Shown here: piece after piece, positions 2-25,580 of the stretch | How positions within the stretch are numbered: the stretch's first letter is position 1 | Layout of the letters: the number at the start of each line of letters is the position of its first letter | DNA from: a virus | DNA length: 28,938 nucleotides | Reading direction: 5' to 3' (one strand) | Virus record (IMG/VR): IMGVR_UViG_3300036766_001043 | Coordinates: 1 to 28,938 of that record | Made by a program: the position numbers and the translations under genes | Notes under the pieces: generated by a model | Databases searched by the model: none | The model's input: the letters and a program-made list of their open reading frames with translations, nothing else | What the model was told of the DNA's origin: nothing

Positions 2-544
2 AAGAAGCGGGCTCAAACCAGAGCTAATAAACCTGACGAAGAAAAGGCTGAGATAAAAAGAAAAAATCAAGAAACTTGGGCTAATAAATCTGAAGAAGAA
101 AAATTGAACTATAGTAAGAGTCAATCCGAATCTAGTAAAATCGCCCAGAATCGACCAGAGGTTAAAGAGAAGAAATCCATCAATGGTATGGTTGCACAAA
201 ATAAGCCTGACATTAGAGCTAATAAATCCAAATTGTTGAAAGGTAAAAATACGGGACCTAAATCAGAAAAACACAAAAAGAAGCTGTCTAATTCTAGTAA
301 AATCGCCCAGAATCGACCAGAAGTTGCGTTTAAAAAATCAAAATCCATGAAGGAGAATTGGGCTAATAAATCTGAGAAAGAAAAAGCTGAAACAAGAAAT
401 AGACAATCTAAATCTGGGAAAATTGCGGCAAATCGGCCAGAAGTAATTGAAAGCAAGAAGTATCACGCCCACATTCGCTGGGATGTTAATAGAAATATTA
501 TTAATCCTAATTGTAAATTTTGTACTGTTGAATCTAATAAATAG
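2..544 (+). CDS. C-terminal part of a repeat-rich homing-endonuclease-type protein (5' end outside window)
   Basis: The reading frame is open from base 2, so the gene starts upstream of the window; the TTG at 104 is only an internal codon. The visible 180 residues are very rich in Lys, Asn and Ser and are built from repeated modules: SSKIAQNRPEV occurs twice exactly and once as SGKIAANRPEV, interleaved with WANKSE-type segments. This resembles the nuclease-associated modular (NUMOD3-like) DNA-binding repeats of phage homing endonucleases. The extreme C-terminus, HIRWDVNRNIINPNCKFC, matches the short tail common to phage GIY-YIG and HNH homing endonucleases. The catalytic domain is not in the window, so its class cannot be stated. 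TAG at 542-544 ends it. Confidence 0.6.
   Translation, partial: KKRAQTRANKPDEEKAEIKRKNQETWANKSEEEKLNYSKSQSESSKIAQNRPEVKEKKSINGMVAQNKPDIRANKSKLLKGKNTGPKSEKHKKKLSNSSKIAQNRPEVAFKKSKSMKENWANKSEKEKAETRNRQSKSGKIAANRPEVIESKKYHAHIRWDVNRNIINPNCKFCTVESNK
131..444 (+). repeat. Direct repeats coding for the modular segments
   Basis: A 29-base unit is identical at 131-159 and 293-321, with a diverged third copy at about 413-444. A second unit, around GGGCTAATAAATCTGA, occurs near 78-93 and 359-374. The repeats are in frame and code for the SSKIAQNRPEV and WANKSE modules, so they are coding duplications, not intergenic repeats. Near-identity at the DNA level suggests recent duplication or gene conversion. 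Confidence 0.75.
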
Positions 545-10532: not shown

Positions 10533-13172
10533 ATGGCATTTTTTACAGAAGAGCATGGTGTGAAGAAAACCCCTTCCGCTTACGCTAATTTGGCTAAAAC
10601 CGAACAGTGTTTAGTATGTCCTAGAAACAACATCAAAGTTCAAAACACTAGTACTCACCCCAAGATGGAAGCGGTCGGTAATAAAAATCCAGACATCTAC
10701 TTTTTGGGGGTAGGACCTTCTAAGGTAGACGACTCTAATGACAGCCCATTTAGTCGTGGAGATATGACGGCCAGTATCTTGCACGAATATCTGGACGATA
10801 TGTTTAAAGATTTTTATGTTAAAAAGGAATGGTCATCCGATTCCTCCCCTCGAAAAATACCCAAGTTTGAATCCACCATCAGGTTTAATAATTTACTAAA
10901 ATGCCATGATATTGCAAAGTCTAATGAACTAACTTTGGATTGTTGTAGGACATTTTTAGAACAGGATATTATTAACACTAAGCCTAAAGTCATAGTTGGG
11001 TTTGGTGAGATCCCATTAAAAGCTATGGTAGGGGTGTCTGGAATTGCAGATTGGCGTGGAAGAAAAATACCAATTAAAATAGGAGACCATACTTGTTGGT
11101 ATTTTGTGCTAGAAGGCCTCGATGAGATATTAAAGAAACGGAACCCAGAAAGAAAATATTTTGTAAGTACATGGGAAGAAGTTTTTAAGCATGATCTTAA
11201 TAAACTAAAAAAATTACTGAATTCTTCTGAGGTCTCAAATCCTCTAGTTATACCTAAAGAAGAAAGAAGGAAAGGAATAGAATTTGTCTTAGGTAAAGGA
11301 CCAGAAGATTTAGAAACCATCAAGGGGTGGCTAAAAGAGTTAATGACACTGCCGAAGATTGGTTTGGACTTAGAAACAAGTGCTATTAAAATATGGACTA
11401 ATAATTCCAAGATATACACGGTTGCTATTGGAACAAGTAAAAAGGTATACGCTTTTCCGATTGAACACCCTAGAGCTTGGGACGGGCAATATAAAGAAAT
11501 AAAGAAAATTTTTATAGATTTTCTTTTAGAATATAAAGGAATAAAGGTTTGTCACAATGATAAGTTTGAAAAGTCATGGTGCTTTTTATACGGCGGGCCG
11601 CGAGTTTTATTTGAAACTAAATGGGGATGCACCATGACAAGAGCCTTTTTATTGGACAGTCGATCCAGCAAGAGGCAGGACAGTGTTCTTAGTTTAGATA
11701 TGTTGTCTTTAATGTATTTCGGATTTCGACTAAAAAATGAATCCAGTGTGGACGTAGAAAATATATTAGCGTCTGAATTAAGTGAGTTGTTGATATATAA
11801 CGGGATGGATACCAAATACACATATGCGTTAGACGACCTCCAAATTGAGGGCTTCAACACCCTGTTAGATAAAGCCTACCAGCATAAATTACATGTTTCT
11901 CAGACATTAGTTTTGACCGAAGATAAGGGATTTCCGGTTGACAAGCCCAAAGTTGAAATGTTTTCTAAGAAATTGGGGGAAGAGGCGTTATCTTTAGATG
12001 CAGAAATAAAAAATTTACCGGCTGTAAAACTGTTTGAAAAAACATACGGAACCTTTAATCCTGGAAGCAGCCCACATTTAGTTAAAATGTTCAGGGATGT
12101 ATTAAAGCTGGAGTCCGTTAAAAATACAAAGAGTGGTAAAGAAGATAGCTTTAGTACAGATAAAGACGTGTTAGATATTTATGCCGCTAAAGGAATAAAG
12201 TTAGCTGAGTTGATAAAATCAAATCGGGAATTGAGAAATTTAAAGTCTACCTACGTAGATAGTGTTCCGGAACTATGTAAATTCGATGGAAAAATACATA
12301 CCAACTTTAGCCATTTGTTTACTTCCACGGGTAGATTAGCTAGTTCCCAACCCAACTTACAAAACTGGCCGATTAGGAAAAATTCTTATATAAGAGAACT
12401 TATTATAGCACCAGCAGGATATTGGATGGTCTCATTCGACTATGGGCAGATTGAAGCCAAAGTTATTGCCATGCTCAGTAAAGATCCTAAATTTGTTAAA
12501 TATGTCTGGGATGATTTTGATGTTCACGGGGATTGGGCTGCTAGGGTTGCTAAAAAGGACCCTAGGTATGCAAAATGTAATAGTATTGATGAGTATCTGA
12601 ATAGTCCTGACAAGAAGAAAAAGTATAGGTCTATAATAAAGAATAGACTGGTGTTCCCATGGTTTTTTGGTGCGGGGCAAAAATCAGTTGGAGATTATTT
12701 AGGGTTTAGTGAAACTCACCGCAAAGAACTTTATGATGAATTCTGGGAGTTATTCGGGGGCATTAAAAAATGGCAGCATAATCAGATAGATTTTTATGAA
12801 AAAAATGGATATATAGAAACAATTACTGGGCATAGACGATACGGGCCCATGACATACAATGAAAAGGTGAACGGATCGGTCCAAGGCTCCGCCAGTGATA
12901 TAGTTACCGACGCCATGAATAGATTATCAGTGATGGCGTTTGAGTTAGAAAAACCGCAACTTCAAATTGTTCTTAACGTCCATGATGATTTAACGTTTTT
13001 CTTACCAGAAAAAACACTGGAAGAGGATATAGAAACTATCGCAAAAGAGATGTGTGTATCTCCCTTTAAAGAGATTAACGTGCCACTTACTCTAGAAGCT
13101 AAACTCGGGTCTAACTGGGGAAACATGAAAGAGTTTGCAGTGTTTAAAACAACCGATTTTCTTCCTAACTGA
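10533..13172 (+). CDS. polA: Family A DNA polymerase with N-terminal uracil-DNA-glycosylase-like domain
   Basis: Replicative polymerase of 879 residues in three parts. Residues 1-235 look like a family 4 UDG: CLVC (26-29) and Cys124 plus Cys137/138 would bind a 4Fe-4S cluster, and KPKVIVGFG (150-158) follows. The C-terminal HP motif of active UDGs is not evident. The 3'-5' exonuclease has DLE (279-281), HNDKFE (341-346, Glu in place of the usual Asp) and YNGMD (422-426). Polymerase motifs: A, DYGQIE (636-641); B, R699-x3-K703 then FPWFFG; C, VHDD (816-819). No 5' nuclease domain is present; that job falls to the 607-1452 gene. SPO1 polymerase has a comparable UDG-like fusion. Confidence 0.92.
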   Translation: MAFFTEEHGVKKTPSAYANLAKTEQCLVCPRNNIKVQNTSTHPKMEAVGNKNPDIYFLGVGPSKVDDSNDSPFSRGDMTASILHEYLDDMFKDFYVKKEWSSDSSPRKIPKFESTIRFNNLLKCHDIAKSNELTLDCCRTFLEQDIINTKPKVIVGFGEIPLKAMVGVSGIADWRGRKIPIKIGDHTCWYFVLEGLDEILKKRNPERKYFVSTWEEVFKHDLNKLKKLLNSSEVSNPLVIPKEERRKGIEFVLGKGPEDLETIKGWLKELMTLPKIGLDLETSAIKIWTNNSKIYTVAIGTSKKVYAFPIEHPRAWDGQYKEIKKIFIDFLLEYKGIKVCHNDKFEKSWCFLYGGPRVLFETKWGCTMTRAFLLDSRSSKRQDSVLSLDMLSLMYFGFRLKNESSVDVENILASELSELLIYNGMDTKYTYALDDLQIEGFNTLLDKAYQHKLHVSQTLVLTEDKGFPVDKPKVEMFSKKLGEEALSLDAEIKNLPAVKLFEKTYGTFNPGSSPHLVKMFRDVLKLESVKNTKSGKEDSFSTDKDVLDIYAAKGIKLAELIKSNRELRNLKSTYVDSVPELCKFDGKIHTNFSHLFTSTGRLASSQPNLQNWPIRKNSYIRELIIAPAGYWMVSFDYGQIEAKVIAMLSKDPKFVKYVWDDFDVHGDWAARVAKKDPRYAKCNSIDEYLNSPDKKKKYRSIIKNRLVFPWFFGAGQKSVGDYLGFSETHRKELYDEFWELFGGIKKWQHNQIDFYEKNGYIETITGHRRYGPMTYNEKVNGSVQGSASDIVTDAMNRLSVMAFELEKPQLQIVLNVHDDLTFFLPEKTLEEDIETIAKEMCVSPFKEINVPLTLEAKLGSNWGNMKEFAVFKTTDFLPN

Positions 13173-15627: not shown

Positions 15628-16134
15628 ATGAGTCAGATTACATTATCGGAAGCTAAAGAATTATTGTTAATAGACAAATACTCTCTTGACACTGAGTGTA
15701 GTACACATCCGTCTTTATTTAGTCATATTGCGGATCAATGCGCAGAAGCCGGCAGTCTTAGTGATCACGCCAAAGAAAATTTAGCTCAGGTAAACGCCAA
15801 AGTGGCTGAAAAACTAAGGCTTAAAGCGAATGAGGAATCAGCTAAATTAACCGAGGCAAAATTGCAGGAGTCAATCTTGTTGGATGAAGAACACAAAGAA
15901 GCCTTTCGGAATTATGCGGCGGCTAAATTAAATGCAGAAAAGTGGACATCTACGAAAGATGCATTCACCCAAAAAGCCTTTATGCTAAAGGATTTATGCG
16001 GTCTTTTTTATGCTCAATACTTTACCAAAGAGTCTGTTAATGTAAACCCAGCAGCTGTGGAAAAAGAAACTATGGATGTTAGAAAGAAATTGCAGGAACA
16101 CCGGAAAGAGAGTATGAGTAATGGACGGTTTTAA
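15628..16134 (+). CDS. Coiled-coil protein, possible recombination mediator
   Basis: A 168-residue, strongly helical protein. Residues about 45-110 are Ala/Glu/Lys-rich and read as a coiled coil; the N-terminal LDTECSTHPSLF segment and the AFTQKAFMLKDLCGLFYAQYF segment (119-139) resemble a family of small phage proteins often found near SSB and RecA. T4 UvsY, the mediator that loads UvsX onto gp32-covered ssDNA, has similar size and position, but sequence identity to UvsY is not evident, so the role is inferred from context. AAAGGAG is 5-6 bases before the ATG. The TnpB remnant lies downstream in the same reading frame, separated by this gene's TAA. Confidence 0.6.
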   Translation: MSQITLSEAKELLLIDKYSLDTECSTHPSLFSHIADQCAEAGSLSDHAKENLAQVNAKVAEKLRLKANEESAKLTEAKLQESILLDEEHKEAFRNYAAAKLNAEKWTSTKDAFTQKAFMLKDLCGLFYAQYFTKESVNVNPAAVEKETMDVRKKLQEHRKESMSNGRF

Positions 16135-16135
16135 G

Positions 16136-16166
16136 TTAATAAGTATAGGGTTATTATCAACCGTGG
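16136..16166 (+). repeat. Upstream copy of the TnpB-flank repeat with adjacent TTAAT
   Basis: TTAAT (16136-16140) is followed by AAGTATAGGGTTATT (16141-16155), identical to the 15 bases that follow the IS right end at 16442. After that the copies diverge but share a CCGTG. TTAAT is a plausible target-adjacent motif by its form; related ISDra2 uses TTGAT. Confidence 0.75.
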
Positions 16167-16200
16167 TTTTAATGCTGGTAGTTGGGTAGAAAAAGAAGGA

Positions 16201-16425
16201 CCTTGCTATACAAGCCAGGAATGCAGTGGCTGTAAGTGTTTGGTTAAGAAAACTCTTGCAGATCGGACGCATAATTGTCCTTTCTGCGGTCTTATTTTAG
16301 ACCGGGACCATAACGCTGCAATAAATATTTTAAACAAATCTACCGCGGGAACCGCGGGATTTCAAGCTTGGGGAGAAGACAGGTTTCAAACTGTTTCTAT
16401 GAACCAAGAAGCCTCGGGCTTTTAG
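16201..16425 (+). pseudogene. tnpB: Truncated TnpB (IS200/IS605 family) C-terminal remnant
   Basis: About 74 codons match the end of TnpB, the RNA-guided nuclease of IS200/IS605 elements: YTSQECSGC, a second CPFC (together the CxxC...CxxC zinc finger), the RuvC III segment LDRDHNAAINIL with the last catalytic Asp, and the family tail GTAGFQAWGED...MNQEASGF. Everything upstream (guide-RNA-binding regions, RuvC I and II) is missing, and no in-frame ATG precedes it; TTG 16240 lies inside the zinc finger. The frame is open back to the TAA of the 15628 gene and is the same frame, so readthrough would give a fusion. No TnpA is present. The tandem ACCGCGGGA (16342-16359) is part of this coding tail. 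It cannot be an active nuclease by itself. Confidence 0.88.
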
Positions 16426-16441
16426 CTCAGGAGCAGTTCAC
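16412..16441 (+). mobile_element. IS200/IS605 right end / presumptive 3' end of an omega-RNA scaffold
   Basis: CCT-GGGCT (16412-16420, C16415 bulged) pairs with AGCTC-AGG (16424-16431) around a TTT loop, overlapping the tnpB stop codon. It is followed by GAGCAGTTCAC, ending in TTCAC (16437-16441). IS200/IS605 elements commonly end with such a hairpin and a terminal TTCAC-like cleavage site, and their omega-RNA runs through this end into the flank, which serves as guide. Confidence 0.65.
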
Positions 16442-16468
16442 AAGTATAGGGTTATTTTAATACCCGTG
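16442..16468 (+). repeat. Downstream copy of the flank repeat (guide position)
   Basis: AAGTATAGGGTTATT begins at the first base after TTCAC and repeats 16141-16155 exactly. In a working IS200/IS605 element the first 16-20 bases here would be the omega-RNA guide. GGGT (16449-16452) and ACCC (16462-16465) could form a weak hairpin. The rest of the gap up to 16556 shows only the SSB ribosome-binding site. Confidence 0.75.
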
Positions 16469-16556
16469 AAAACTATGATAAAAAAAGAAACAAAAAGTAG
16501 CACAGAGGCAATTACGCCAAGAGCTATTGAAACAACAAACAAAAAGGAGAAATAAA

Positions 16557-17684
16557 ATGGAACCAAAGAGATTCGTATATAAACCGAGAAGTGTTGATGC
16601 GGTAAAGAAACGAGCAAGTGGAAGTAAATCGGATAGAATTGTAAAAGACGGGTATAAAGTTCTTACTGCGGCAGAAGGTGAGAATGTCCTTCGGATCATG
16701 CCTAATACTTGGGATGCGGAAGTTACTCATTATGGATTTGATGTCTACACACATTATGGAGTGGGTCCAGATAAGGCACAATATCTTTGTTTAGAGAGAA
16801 TGAAATTAGGTAGCAAATGCCCTGTCTGTGAAGAAGGGTATAAACCAGCCCGAGCTGAATGGGAAGCTGAGCCTGTGACTAATAAGGACAGGAAAGATGA
16901 ATTAAAAAAATATATGGTTTCTTTATCCCCAAAACAACAGGTCGCCATGTGGGTTATTGATAGGAAACATGAAGATCTTGGTCCTCAAATCTTCCTCATG
17001 ACTGCTAAAATGGATAGAGAATTTGCGGCTCTGGGGGTTGACCCCTCCGATGGGTCACTTATCTCTATTGAGAGCCCTACAGAGGGATTTGACATCATCT
17101 TTACCAGAACAGGTAAGGGTTTAACTACCGAATACACTGGAAAACAGGTTGCTAGGCGTGCTACTCCGTTAAGTTCCGAGAATGGAGACAAATGGATGCT
17201 TCTAGTAGAAAAGAATCCTCTTCCTAAGTGTTTTGTGTCATTTAGCTTCGATTACATTGATGCGGTGTATCACGCTAAATTACCTAACAAAGTTGACGCT
17301 GATGGAACAGATGAAGGAACTGAGGTAGATACAAAAATGGCTCATGTGCAAGAGGATCATGATCAGGTTACTGGGGAATCGAATGAAGAGACCTCGACTA
17401 ATGCCTCTCAGGAAGAAGAAATTACTTTCACTTATGAGGATTTGGTGTCTCAACCCGCCGCAGATTTAGCTAACTTTGCCAGAGAGAATGGTATATTTAC
17501 CACCAAAGAGATTATGTTGGCGGGCAGTAACATTCTTAATAAGTTATGCTCTAAGATGGGGATTACTGTTCCCGGTGATAAACCAGCTGAAGCCCCTGCC
17601 CCAACACCTCCTGCGGATAATTCTGCTAGGAATTCTTATCGGGAAAAATTGAGACAAACTGTAGCAGATGCTAAGGGGGTTTAA
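16557..17684 (+). CDS. Single-stranded DNA-binding protein, gp32-like
   Basis: Coats ssDNA at the fork and during recombination. The 375-residue protein has a basic N-terminus (1-35), a core with VLRIMPN (44-50), a THYG segment and a zinc-binding set His66, Cys78, Cys88, Cys91 (CPVC), as in T4 gp32 and relatives, then an acidic linker (about 245-290) and a Pro/Ala-rich tail. The acidic C-terminal half is the usual partner-binding part of phage SSBs. ATG 16557 with AAGGAG 8-9 bases upstream is preferred over the in-frame TTG 16527, which has no ribosome-binding site. RecA starts one base after its stop, so the two are co-translated. Confidence 0.82.
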   Translation: MEPKRFVYKPRSVDAVKKRASGSKSDRIVKDGYKVLTAAEGENVLRIMPNTWDAEVTHYGFDVYTHYGVGPDKAQYLCLERMKLGSKCPVCEEGYKPARAEWEAEPVTNKDRKDELKKYMVSLSPKQQVAMWVIDRKHEDLGPQIFLMTAKMDREFAALGVDPSDGSLISIESPTEGFDIIFTRTGKGLTTEYTGKQVARRATPLSSENGDKWMLLVEKNPLPKCFVSFSFDYIDAVYHAKLPNKVDADGTDEGTEVDTKMAHVQEDHDQVTGESNEETSTNASQEEEITFTYEDLVSQPAADLANFARENGIFTTKEIMLAGSNILNKLCSKMGITVPGDKPAEAPAPTPPADNSARNSYREKLRQTVADAKGV

Positions 17685-17685
17685 A

Positions 17686-18744
17686 ATGAAACGAGTAAAA
17701 GCAAATGATGATATCGATCAGAATCCAACAACTACAGAACAAGTAGGTAACTACTTCACAGACGATAAACCCACTGGATTTATTTCCAGTGGGTGTCAAA
17801 TCCTAGATAGTGTAATGGGATTTGGGTATCCATTAGGCAAGATTGTTAATGTGGTCGGCAACCGATCTTCTGGCAAAACTTTGATGGCTATTGAACTCTG
17901 TGCTAACTTTCATAAAGACTACCCCGAAAGTAAGATTTATTATCATGAGGCCGAAGCGGCCTTTGACCCCGGCTATGCGGAAACTTTAGGAATGCCCCTA
18001 GAGGCTGTGGAATTTGTAGAAGAATCAAAGACTATTCCTGATGTTTTCACAGTTGAAGGTCTGTTTAAAAAGTTAGATGAGATCATGGATGAAAAGGAAA
18101 AGAATAAGGATACTTCTCCGTCTATTTATATCTTGGACTCCCTAGATGCATTATCTGATCAAAAGGAACAAGAAAGTGAAATTGATGAGGGTACTTACGG
18201 AATGGCGAAGGCTAAGCAACTATCTACACTTTTCAGGCGTATGATTAAGAGGTTACATAAAGCCAACATTATGTTTGTTGTTATTTCTCAAGTCAGAACT
18301 AAAGTCAACGCAACTGCATTTGGGGAAAAGACAACAAGAGCGGGCGGGATGGCTTTGGATTTTTACGCGTCTATTATACTGCACCTTAATGAAATAGAGA
18401 AGATCAAGAAGACTATTAACGGAATCCAGAGGCCAGTTGGGGTGTGGGTAAAGGTAAATTGCAAGAAGAATAAAGTTGCAAATCCATACCGTCAATGTGA
18501 ATTTCCGATATATTTTGGTTTTGGGATTGAAGATGTTATTGCAAACGTGAGCTTTTTGAAAACGGTGAAAGGGACCCTGGAAGAAATAGGATATTCCACC
18601 TCGATCAAGGAAAGTGAGATTTCCGATGTTGCCAGAGAAGTGAGATCTGGGAATAAAGAACTTGGTGTTAAAATAGCTGAACAGGCTAAAAAGGTATGGA
18701 AAGAAGTTGATAAAGGTTTCATGCCAGAGTTTAAAAAATACTAA
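17686..18744 (+). CDS. recA: RecA/UvsX-like recombinase
   Basis: Forms filaments on ssDNA and drives strand exchange. The 352-residue protein has Walker A GNRSSGKT (58-65), Walker B IYILDSLDAL near 144-153, a VVISQVR strand and the loop 2 region with KTTRAGGMALDFYASIILHL near 215-234. Length and the short N-terminus resemble phage recombinases. The ATG at 17686 is chosen because AAGGGGG lies 6 bases upstream and the gene then begins one base after the SSB stop; ATG 17668 would overlap SSB and lacks a ribosome-binding site. A perfect 10-bp hairpin lies about 85 bases into the coding sequence. Confidence 0.93.
   Translation: MKRVKANDDIDQNPTTTEQVGNYFTDDKPTGFISSGCQILDSVMGFGYPLGKIVNVVGNRSSGKTLMAIELCANFHKDYPESKIYYHEAEAAFDPGYAETLGMPLEAVEFVEESKTIPDVFTVEGLFKKLDEIMDEKEKNKDTSPSIYILDSLDALSDQKEQESEIDEGTYGMAKAKQLSTLFRRMIKRLHKANIMFVVISQVRTKVNATAFGEKTTRAGGMALDFYASIILHLNEIEKIKKTINGIQRPVGVWVKVNCKKNKVANPYRQCEFPIYFGFGIEDVIANVSFLKTVKGTLEEIGYSTSIKESEISDVAREVRSGNKELGVKIAEQAKKVWKEVDKGFMPEFKKY
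17769..17794 (+). promoter_or_regulatory. Perfect 10-bp hairpin inside the recA 5' coding region
   Basis: ACCCACTGGA (17769-17778), loop TTTATT, TCCAGTGGGT (17785-17794). The stem is perfect and GC-richer than its surroundings. There is no following T-run, so it is not a typical terminator. It could slow ribosomes, stabilise mRNA or bind a protein; function unknown. Confidence 0.45.
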
Positions 18745-24656: not shown

Positions 24657-25580
24657 ATGAGAGTTCCTGAATTTCAAAAAGAATATGATGAGGCTTTACT
24701 TAATCCACCCTTGTGTGCTTGCGGTTGTGGTGGCAAGGTTGTGATAAAAATAAGACACGCTGTCTTTGGAGTTCCAAAATACAGAAAAGGTCACCATGTT
24801 GTAAAGAGAATTTATAATTCAAGAATTAGAAAAGATCGGTTATTATATGAAGAAAATAAAGAGTATTTTTGTTTGTGTAATTGTAAAGCTAAAATAGCAA
24901 TTAAAGAATCTCATAAATTTGAAGGCGTTCCAAAATACTTGAAAGGTCATTTTTCCAAAGGCAGACTTCTGGAAGAATCTTTCGGAAAAGAGTTTGCAGA
25001 AATTTTCTTGCAAAGAAACAAGGATTTTGGCATTACACGAAAAAATAAAACATATGAAGAGATTTACGGCGTTGACACCGCTAAAAAACTTAAAAAATGT
25101 AGATCTATAGCTTGGACTGGAAGACCTTCCCCTTTAAAGGGTAGAACTTATAAAGAAATTCATGGAGAAGAAAAAGCAGCAGAATTGTCCCAAAAGAGGC
25201 GCATGACGAAACGGGTTTTTAAAGCCACCAAACCAGAATTGATTCTTCAAGAAGCTATTAGATTAAATATAACTTTTAATTTTGAAACCCAAAAGCAAAT
25301 TTATGGTTTACCAGATATCTTTATAGAACCTAATATCTGCATTTTTGTTGATGGTGATTATTATCACGCTTATCCTGGTAAATACAAAGCGGAGACTATA
25401 TTTTTTAAAACTAAAACTGCCCAACAAATCTGGGATAAAGACAAACGAGTTACTGATTATTTAGTAAATAAAGGATATGTAGTTTTACGATTTTGGGAAC
25501 ATGATATACATAATAATTTGGAAAAATGCACTAATACAATAAGGGAGTATTGCGATGTCCAAAATAGCTATCTGTTCTGA
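24657..25580 (+). CDS. EDxHD (Vsr-like) freestanding homing endonuclease
   Basis: 307 residues in three parts. Two Cys/His repeats: CACGC...VFGVPKYRKGHH (20-47) and CLCNC...FEGVPKYLKGHF (72-99), likely zinc-binding. Two short DNA-binding-like modules: TYEEIYGVDTAKKL (132-145) and TYKEIHGEEKAAEL (164-177). Then a Vsr-like nuclease core with TKPE (191-194), GLPDIFI (217-223), FVDGDYYHAYP (230-240) and LRFWEHDIH (277-285), which fits the EDxHD homing endonucleases such as I-Bth0305I. It is inserted between the 254-residue gene and sbcD, overlapping sbcD by 26 bases and carrying that gene's ribosome-binding site inside its own 3' end. Confidence 0.85.
   Translation: MRVPEFQKEYDEALLNPPLCACGCGGKVVIKIRHAVFGVPKYRKGHHVVKRIYNSRIRKDRLLYEENKEYFCLCNCKAKIAIKESHKFEGVPKYLKGHFSKGRLLEESFGKEFAEIFLQRNKDFGITRKNKTYEEIYGVDTAKKLKKCRSIAWTGRPSPLKGRTYKEIHGEEKAAELSQKRRMTKRVFKATKPELILQEAIRLNITFNFETQKQIYGLPDIFIEPNICIFVDGDYYHAYPGKYKAETIFFKTKTAQQIWDKDKRVTDYLVNKGYVVLRFWEHDIHNNLEKCTNTIREYCDVQNSYLF

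What the first reader, a model, noticed from the sequence alone, without database searches (positions are those of the whole stretch)
16136..16470. TnpB remnant with right end whose guide-position sequence is duplicated next to a TAM-like TTAAT
Seen: a tnpB 3' fragment, a hairpin over its stop, TTCAC at 16437-16441, then AAGTATAGGGTTATT. The same 15-mer lies at 16141-16155 directly after TTAAT. The repeat starts exactly at the IS end and identity stops after 15 bases. Known: in IS200/IS605 the sequence after the right end acts as omega-RNA guide, and TnpB cuts about 15-21 bases from the TAM. Inference: a cut at the restored empty site followed by incomplete copy-back would leave exactly this structure (left piece = TAM plus about 15 bases, right piece = partial IS plus target). 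Alternatively, the element inserted in one of two older tandem repeats and lost its left part. The omega-RNA portion appears whole, so it may still be transcribed into a guide RNA that a TnpB from the host could load, or that regulates ssb/recA.
Basis: partly seen in the sequence, partly recalled or inferred. Interest (0 to 1): 0.78.

Follow-up and report, generated by a model that had tools for sequence, protein, structure and literature searches.

The report
Broken jumping-gene remnant in phage gene
A phage gene for a tiny membrane protein is split by the worn-down 3' end of a TnpB transposon, and the short repeat beside it is most simply a duplicated piece of the insertion site rather than a scar of TnpB cutting.

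Summary
A 15-mer (AAGTATAGGGTTATT) lies at 16141-16155 after TTAAT and again at 16442-16456, flush with the right end (TTCAC) of a 5'-truncated IS200/IS605-type element. The right end and the omega-RNA scaffold are structurally whole: a covariance model built without the window finds 16340-16441 at 64 bits. Relatives show that the element sits inside a small single-TM-protein gene placed between a conserved hypothetical gene and a gp32-like ssb. The left 15-mer is native coding sequence (MDGFKLISIGLLSTVVL...) and continues natively to a second TTAAT (16169-16173), where IS homology begins exactly. After the right 15-mer comes TTAAT again and then the rest of the gene. Removing 16174-16461 restores a 48-codon ORF ending 1 nt before the ssb start. 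The identity ends at 15 bases because the right copy lacks 13 nt, not because the left piece was cut there. The TnpB-cut/copy-back model predicts a left piece of TAM plus 15-21 nt, but 33 nt are present. Best reading: an ordinary decayed IS insertion with a local duplication of its target. TnpB-linked repair is not excluded. No recurrence was found at 66 other TnpB right ends, and no close phage relative exists in the collections searched.

The parts
15628..16134 (+). Conserved hypothetical gene upstream; stop at 16132-16134
   Evidence: 22-28% identity and same position in L186, Edwardsiella phage ZHS and Vibrio phage MAR10
16121..16173 (+). 5' part of the interrupted small membrane-protein gene (MDGFKLISIGLLSTVVL...), overlapping the end of the upstream gene
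   Evidence: A 44-72 aa single-TM ORF lies at the same place in relatives; alignment A6
16136..16140 (+). TTAAT 1, candidate TAM/target directly before the left 15-mer
   Evidence: Sequence. TTAAT as TAM is inferred; relatives use TTTAT, TTTAA, TTTAG and TTTAC
16141..16155 (+). Left copy of AAGTATAGGGTTATT, native coding sequence
16156..16168 (+). 13 nt (ATCAACCGTGGTT) present only in the left copy; native TM-coding sequence
16169..16173 (+). TTAAT 2; the IS-derived sequence starts right after it
   Evidence: Homology to L106 begins at 16174
16174..16425 (+). 3' fragment of tnpB (zinc ribbon and last RuvC motif), 5' part and left end missing
   Evidence: PF07282; 71% identity to L106 TnpB; 74% DNA identity 16174-16441
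16340..16441 (+). omega-RNA scaffold and right end: 5-bp stem with GGAAC loop, CTTGG/CCAAG helix, terminal hairpin, TTCAC end
   Evidence: Covarying helices; model R1 built without the window, 64.2 bits, E=3e-12
16442..16456 (+). Right copy of the 15-mer, in omega-RNA guide position
16457..16461 (+). Third TTAAT; with the end of the 15-mer forms TTTTAAT (16455-16461), equal to 16167-16173
16462..16555 (+). 3' part of the small gene (...PVKTMIKKETKSSTEAITPRAIETTNKKEK*)
   Evidence: Joins in frame to the 5' part when 16174-16461 is left out, giving a 48-aa ORF
16557..17684 (+). gp32-like single-stranded DNA-binding protein gene
   Evidence: PF08804; relatives
17668..18744 (+). recA-like gene
   Evidence: PF00154

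Best explanation
An IS200/IS605-type element carrying tnpB entered a small membrane-protein gene of this phage directly 3' of a TTAAT, next to AAGTATAGGG. The target segment then came to stand on both sides of the element. This happened either because the 33-nt stretch between two TTAATA sequences had been duplicated by slippage and the element entered the middle TTAAT, or because an empty copy and a filled copy were joined by ordinary illegitimate recombination. The element lost its left end and most of tnpB, and the right target copy lost 13 nt. What remains is a 288-nt insertion (16174-16461) that interrupts the small gene. Shown: the remnant, its exact right end, the intact scaffold, the interrupted gene, and the extra TTAAT at both borders. 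Inferred: the order and kind of the rearrangement steps and TTAAT as the TAM.
For: The left 15-mer lies in a TM-coding ORF found at the same place in relatives. IS homology starts exactly after TTAAT 2 and ends at the canonical TTCAC end. Leaving out 16174-16461 joins TTTTAAT to TTTTAAT and gives one ORF of 48 aa, the family's usual length, ending 1 nt before the ssb ATG; it aligns with homologues across the junction, VVLIPVK against FIYIAVR. The TTAATA repeats 33 nt apart provide a plain slippage route. Among 66 right-end flanks tested only the window shows such a repeat, so nothing points to a recurring mechanism.
Against: It needs more than one step, and none is documented by an intermediate. 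No phage close enough to show the empty site was found. TTAAT was not seen as TAM in any relative (TTTAN instead). The restored 48-aa protein lacks the AYFxSK motif of its relatives, so the pre-insertion gene may have differed. The 13-nt gap begins at +15, which happens to match the main TnpB cut position on the non-target strand.
Confidence: 0.6

Rival explanations
1. TnpB-linked aberrant repair: TnpB cut the empty site produced by excision, and repair from the filled sister copied only part of the element, leaving target sequence on both sides.
For: Excision leaves an empty sister that TnpB cuts 15-21 bp from the TAM, main non-target-strand cut about +15. The right 15-mer ends at +15. The remnant keeps RE and loses LE, as copying from the right flank would give.
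Against: The left piece runs to +33 and ends at another TTAAT, not at +15 to +21. The right piece lacks +16 to +28, which copy-back should contain. TTAAT is not a TAM seen in relatives. No second case among 66 right ends.
Confidence: 0.2
2. The two 15-mers existed before the element arrived, as an older tandem duplication or an unrelated repeat, and the insertion next to one of them has no further meaning.
For: Two TTAATA sequences 33 nt apart would allow slippage. A full in-frame duplication of 33 nt would keep the gene open (11 codons).
Against: No IS-free relative shows it. The repeat starts exactly at the IS end, as expected if it is the target of this element.
Confidence: 0.12
3. The inserted 281-288 nt is a captured copy of an omega-RNA-like transcript (tnpB 3' part, scaffold, about 13-15 nt of guide), inserted between TTTTAAT direct repeats.
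For: The extent matches an omega-RNA with its guide; the insert is flanked by TTTTAAT on both sides (16167-16173, 16455-16461).
Against: Nothing shows RNA or reverse transcription; DNA-level events explain the same ends. The processed omega-RNA of AmaTnpB is much shorter (126 nt).
Confidence: 0.04

Closest known systems
IS200/IS605 elements with tnpB and GGTAGTTCAC right ends (L106 phage copy; L190 Deltaproteobacteria; Methanolobus/Methanosalsum copies L191-L198)
   Same: TNB domain, omega-RNA helices, terminal hairpin, TTCAC right end, guide-position flank
   Different: In the window the left end, tnpA (if any) and about three quarters of tnpB are missing; TTAAT instead of TTTAT/TTTAA before the target
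ISDra2 TnpB/reRNA system (PMC8612924)
   Same: Logic of right-end RNA plus flanking guide, and an empty site that becomes a TAM plus target
   Different: No intact nuclease here, and the left piece is not the size a cut would leave
TldR, phage-borne RNA-guided regulators related to TnpB (PMC13418256, abstract only)
   Same: TnpB-derived sequence in a phage
   Different: TldR keeps a full protein (own knowledge); the window keeps only about 84 C-terminal residues and shows no evidence of regulation

Membership tests
IS200/IS605-type element with TnpB | TnpB C-terminal (TNB, zinc ribbon) domain | tested here: met
   PF07282, E=1e-14
IS200/IS605-type element with TnpB | Subterminal hairpin and conserved right-end cleavage sequence | tested here: met
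IS200/IS605-type element with TnpB | Omega-RNA scaffold overlapping the tnpB 3' end | tested here: met
   All cells paired in helices 1 and 2, 8 of 14 pairs with two-sided changes; 64.2 bits with a model built without the window
IS200/IS605-type element with TnpB | Left end 3' of a TAM | tested here: not met
   Left end absent; the remnant begins inside tnpB, so it is a remnant, not an element
IS200/IS605-type element with TnpB | Intact RuvC nuclease | tested here: not met
   Only the last part of TnpB remains
   Native sequence runs to +33
   Left end lost; relatives show TTTAN
   None among the other right ends in a set of 66, most of them in longer copies; 9 more tnpB right ends also none
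Small TM gene 5' of gp32-like ssb (Mardecavirus-like synteny) | 44-72 aa ORF, N-terminal TM, between the hypothetical gene and ssb | tested here: met
Small TM gene 5' of gp32-like ssb (Mardecavirus-like synteny) | R....AYFxSK motif after the TM | tested here: not met
   Rejoined ORF has VKTMIKKETKSS at that place

The most novel reading that the evidence does not exclude
The insert is a fossil of RNA-guided nuclease activity in a phage: either the repair product of a TnpB cut at the empty site (the right copy ends at +15, the main cut position) or a captured copy of the omega-RNA with its guide. In either case it would be a natural sequence record of a TnpB-driven repair event.
Probability: 0.15. 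Interest if true: 0.7.

Novelty: new member of a known kind. Interest (0 to 1): 0.25.

Why it matters
If it were a TnpB repair scar it would give sequence evidence from nature for the proposed peel-and-paste plus cut-and-copy cycle of IS200/IS605 elements. As it stands it shows a decayed element in a phage replication operon that still carries a complete omega-RNA scaffold. Its guide matches a target 300 bp away in the same genome, so any compatible TnpB that accepts TTAAT would be predicted to cut this phage. That is testable in vitro.

Tried and rejected
Close phage relatives: blastn to 50,697 phage records gave no match; single-protein IMG/VR scans with ssb and recA found none; the upstream gene found only L186 at 30%; the ssb alignment found 73 distant ones. 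The 15-mer occurs in 103 other viral stretches; none is preceded by TTAAT or TTCAC. Rfam: no hit. An early idea that the native middle of the small gene was lost was dropped when the rejoined ORF aligned across the junction at the right spacing, though the missing AYF motif leaves some doubt. The apparent extension of the TnpB match to 16057 contains two stops and covers the conserved upstream gene, so it was taken as a spurious extension. The L106 left end could not be located. A pattern scan for right ends brought mostly chance matches, with 9 tnpB right ends and no repeat. A literature search for TTAAT as a TnpB TAM found no paper.

Full report
What was checked. The 15-mer AAGTATAGGGTTATT occurs at 16141-16155 and 16442-16456 and nowhere else in the window. 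Simulated windows give 0.08 such pairs within 400 nt on average, and the anchored form (flush with a fixed point) never appeared in 400 simulated windows. The repeat is therefore real. It is part of a 22-nt match with two mismatches.

What the element is. Frame 16138-16425 gives a protein with the TNB domain PF07282. The best viral relative, L106, carries a full-length TnpB of 389 aa at 71% identity over the shared part. DNA similarity to L106 runs from 16174 to 16441. Multi-copy relatives in archaea and bacteria fix the right end at ...GGTAGTTCAC and the left target at TTTAT, TTTAA, TTTAG or TTTAC. The window therefore holds only the right part of an IS200/IS605-type element. Its omega-RNA portion is complete: three helices are kept with two-sided changes in 8 of 14 pairs, and a covariance model built from ten relatives without the window finds 16340-16441 at 64.2 bits, within the range of most relatives at about 35-100 bits. 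Rfam has no matching family.

Where it sits. The window order polA - thyX - DnaX-like - hypothetical - [element] - gp32-like ssb - recA matches Edwardsiella phage ZHS (which has another gene in place of thyX) and, apart from a thymidylate kinase gene between ssb and recA, Vibrio phages MAR10 and SSP002. Those phages have a 44-46 aa gene between the hypothetical gene and ssb. It is also present in L186, L276 and most of the better IMG/VR relatives, with one TM helix and usually an R....AYFxSK motif. In the window an ORF starts at 16121 inside the end of the upstream gene and reads MDGFKLISIGLLSTVVL. The left 15-mer codes for its ISIGLL part, so that copy is native phage sequence and continues natively for 18 more bases to a second TTAAT at 16169-16173. 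IS homology begins at the next base.

The right side. After the right 15-mer comes TTAATACCCGTGAAAACTATG.... If the left flank up to TTTTAAT (16173) is joined to the right flank after TTTTAAT (16461), a single ORF of 48 codons appears and ends at 16555, one base before the ssb ATG at 16557. It has the family's length and aligns across the junction, although the AYF motif is not conserved. The other two joins tested give stops after 12 and 23 codons; about one in three arbitrary right breakpoints would also give the tail frame, so the frame alone is weak support. The window thus looks like an intact small gene with a 288-nt insertion, 16174-16461, made of tnpB 3' part, right end, a copy of the 15 bases that follow TTAAT 1, and TTAAT. 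A match of TTAAT at a given place has a chance probability of about 0.003 at this base composition.

How it may have arisen. The right 15-mer directly follows TTCAC, and the left one directly follows TTAAT, so the element's target was TTAAT followed by AAGTATAGGG; this is inference from the way such elements insert. To have the target on both sides, either the 33-nt segment between the two TTAATA sequences was duplicated first and the element entered the middle TTAAT, or an empty and a filled copy were joined. Both then need loss of the left end and most of tnpB, and a 13-nt loss in the right copy. These are mundane steps. With an active TnpB such an arrangement would be cut in cis, since the left copy is a TAM-plus-target for the guide. 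Loss of the nuclease is therefore what one would expect in a surviving form (inference).

TnpB cuts 15-21 bp from the TAM, mainly near +15 on the non-target strand (PMC8612924; PMC12908284). Copy-back with end joining predicts a left piece of that size and a right piece that keeps the native flank. The window shows a left piece of +33 ending at another TTAAT, and a right piece lacking +16 to +28. The exact 15 is a property of the right copy. A variant with template switches could still involve TnpB, so the idea is lowered, not excluded. A scan of 66 right-end flanks found no other such repeat, but most of those elements are longer, so the test is weak.

Limits. The TAM of this very element cannot be read because its left end is gone. 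A metagenome assembly error cannot be checked without reads, though a 15-nt repeat is too short to mislead a usual assembler.

Noticed in passing
window 16121-16555; L276, L186, L187, L188, L275: A small single-TM protein gene (44-72 aa) is conserved directly 5' of the gp32-like ssb across many phages; it is annotated only as hypothetical, and in Vibrio phage BH21-A1 (L273, about 2300-2365) the matching C-terminal sequence lies within a longer annotated ORF or is not annotated as its own gene.
   Followed up: partly
window 16340-16441, L106, L190-L198, L206, L216: The omega-RNA of these TTCAC-ended elements has a strongly covarying 5-bp stem with GGAAC loop inside the tnpB reading frame; the window copy matches no Rfam 15 family.
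   Followed up: partly
L106 and L276: The best relative of the IS remnant and the best relative of the phage ssb come from the same metagenome (3300036766), suggesting the element circulates among phages of one community.
   Followed up: partly
window 10533-13172: Family A DNA polymerase with an N-terminal uracil-DNA-glycosylase domain.
   Followed up: no
window 2-544: Repeats of the type SSKIAQNRPEV with direct DNA repeats (131-159/293-321, 76-93/358-375), resembling the DNA-binding repeats of homing endonucleases.
   Followed up: no
window 24657-25580: ORF with DUF559/Vsr-like endonuclease similarity, possibly a homing endonuclease.
   Followed up: no
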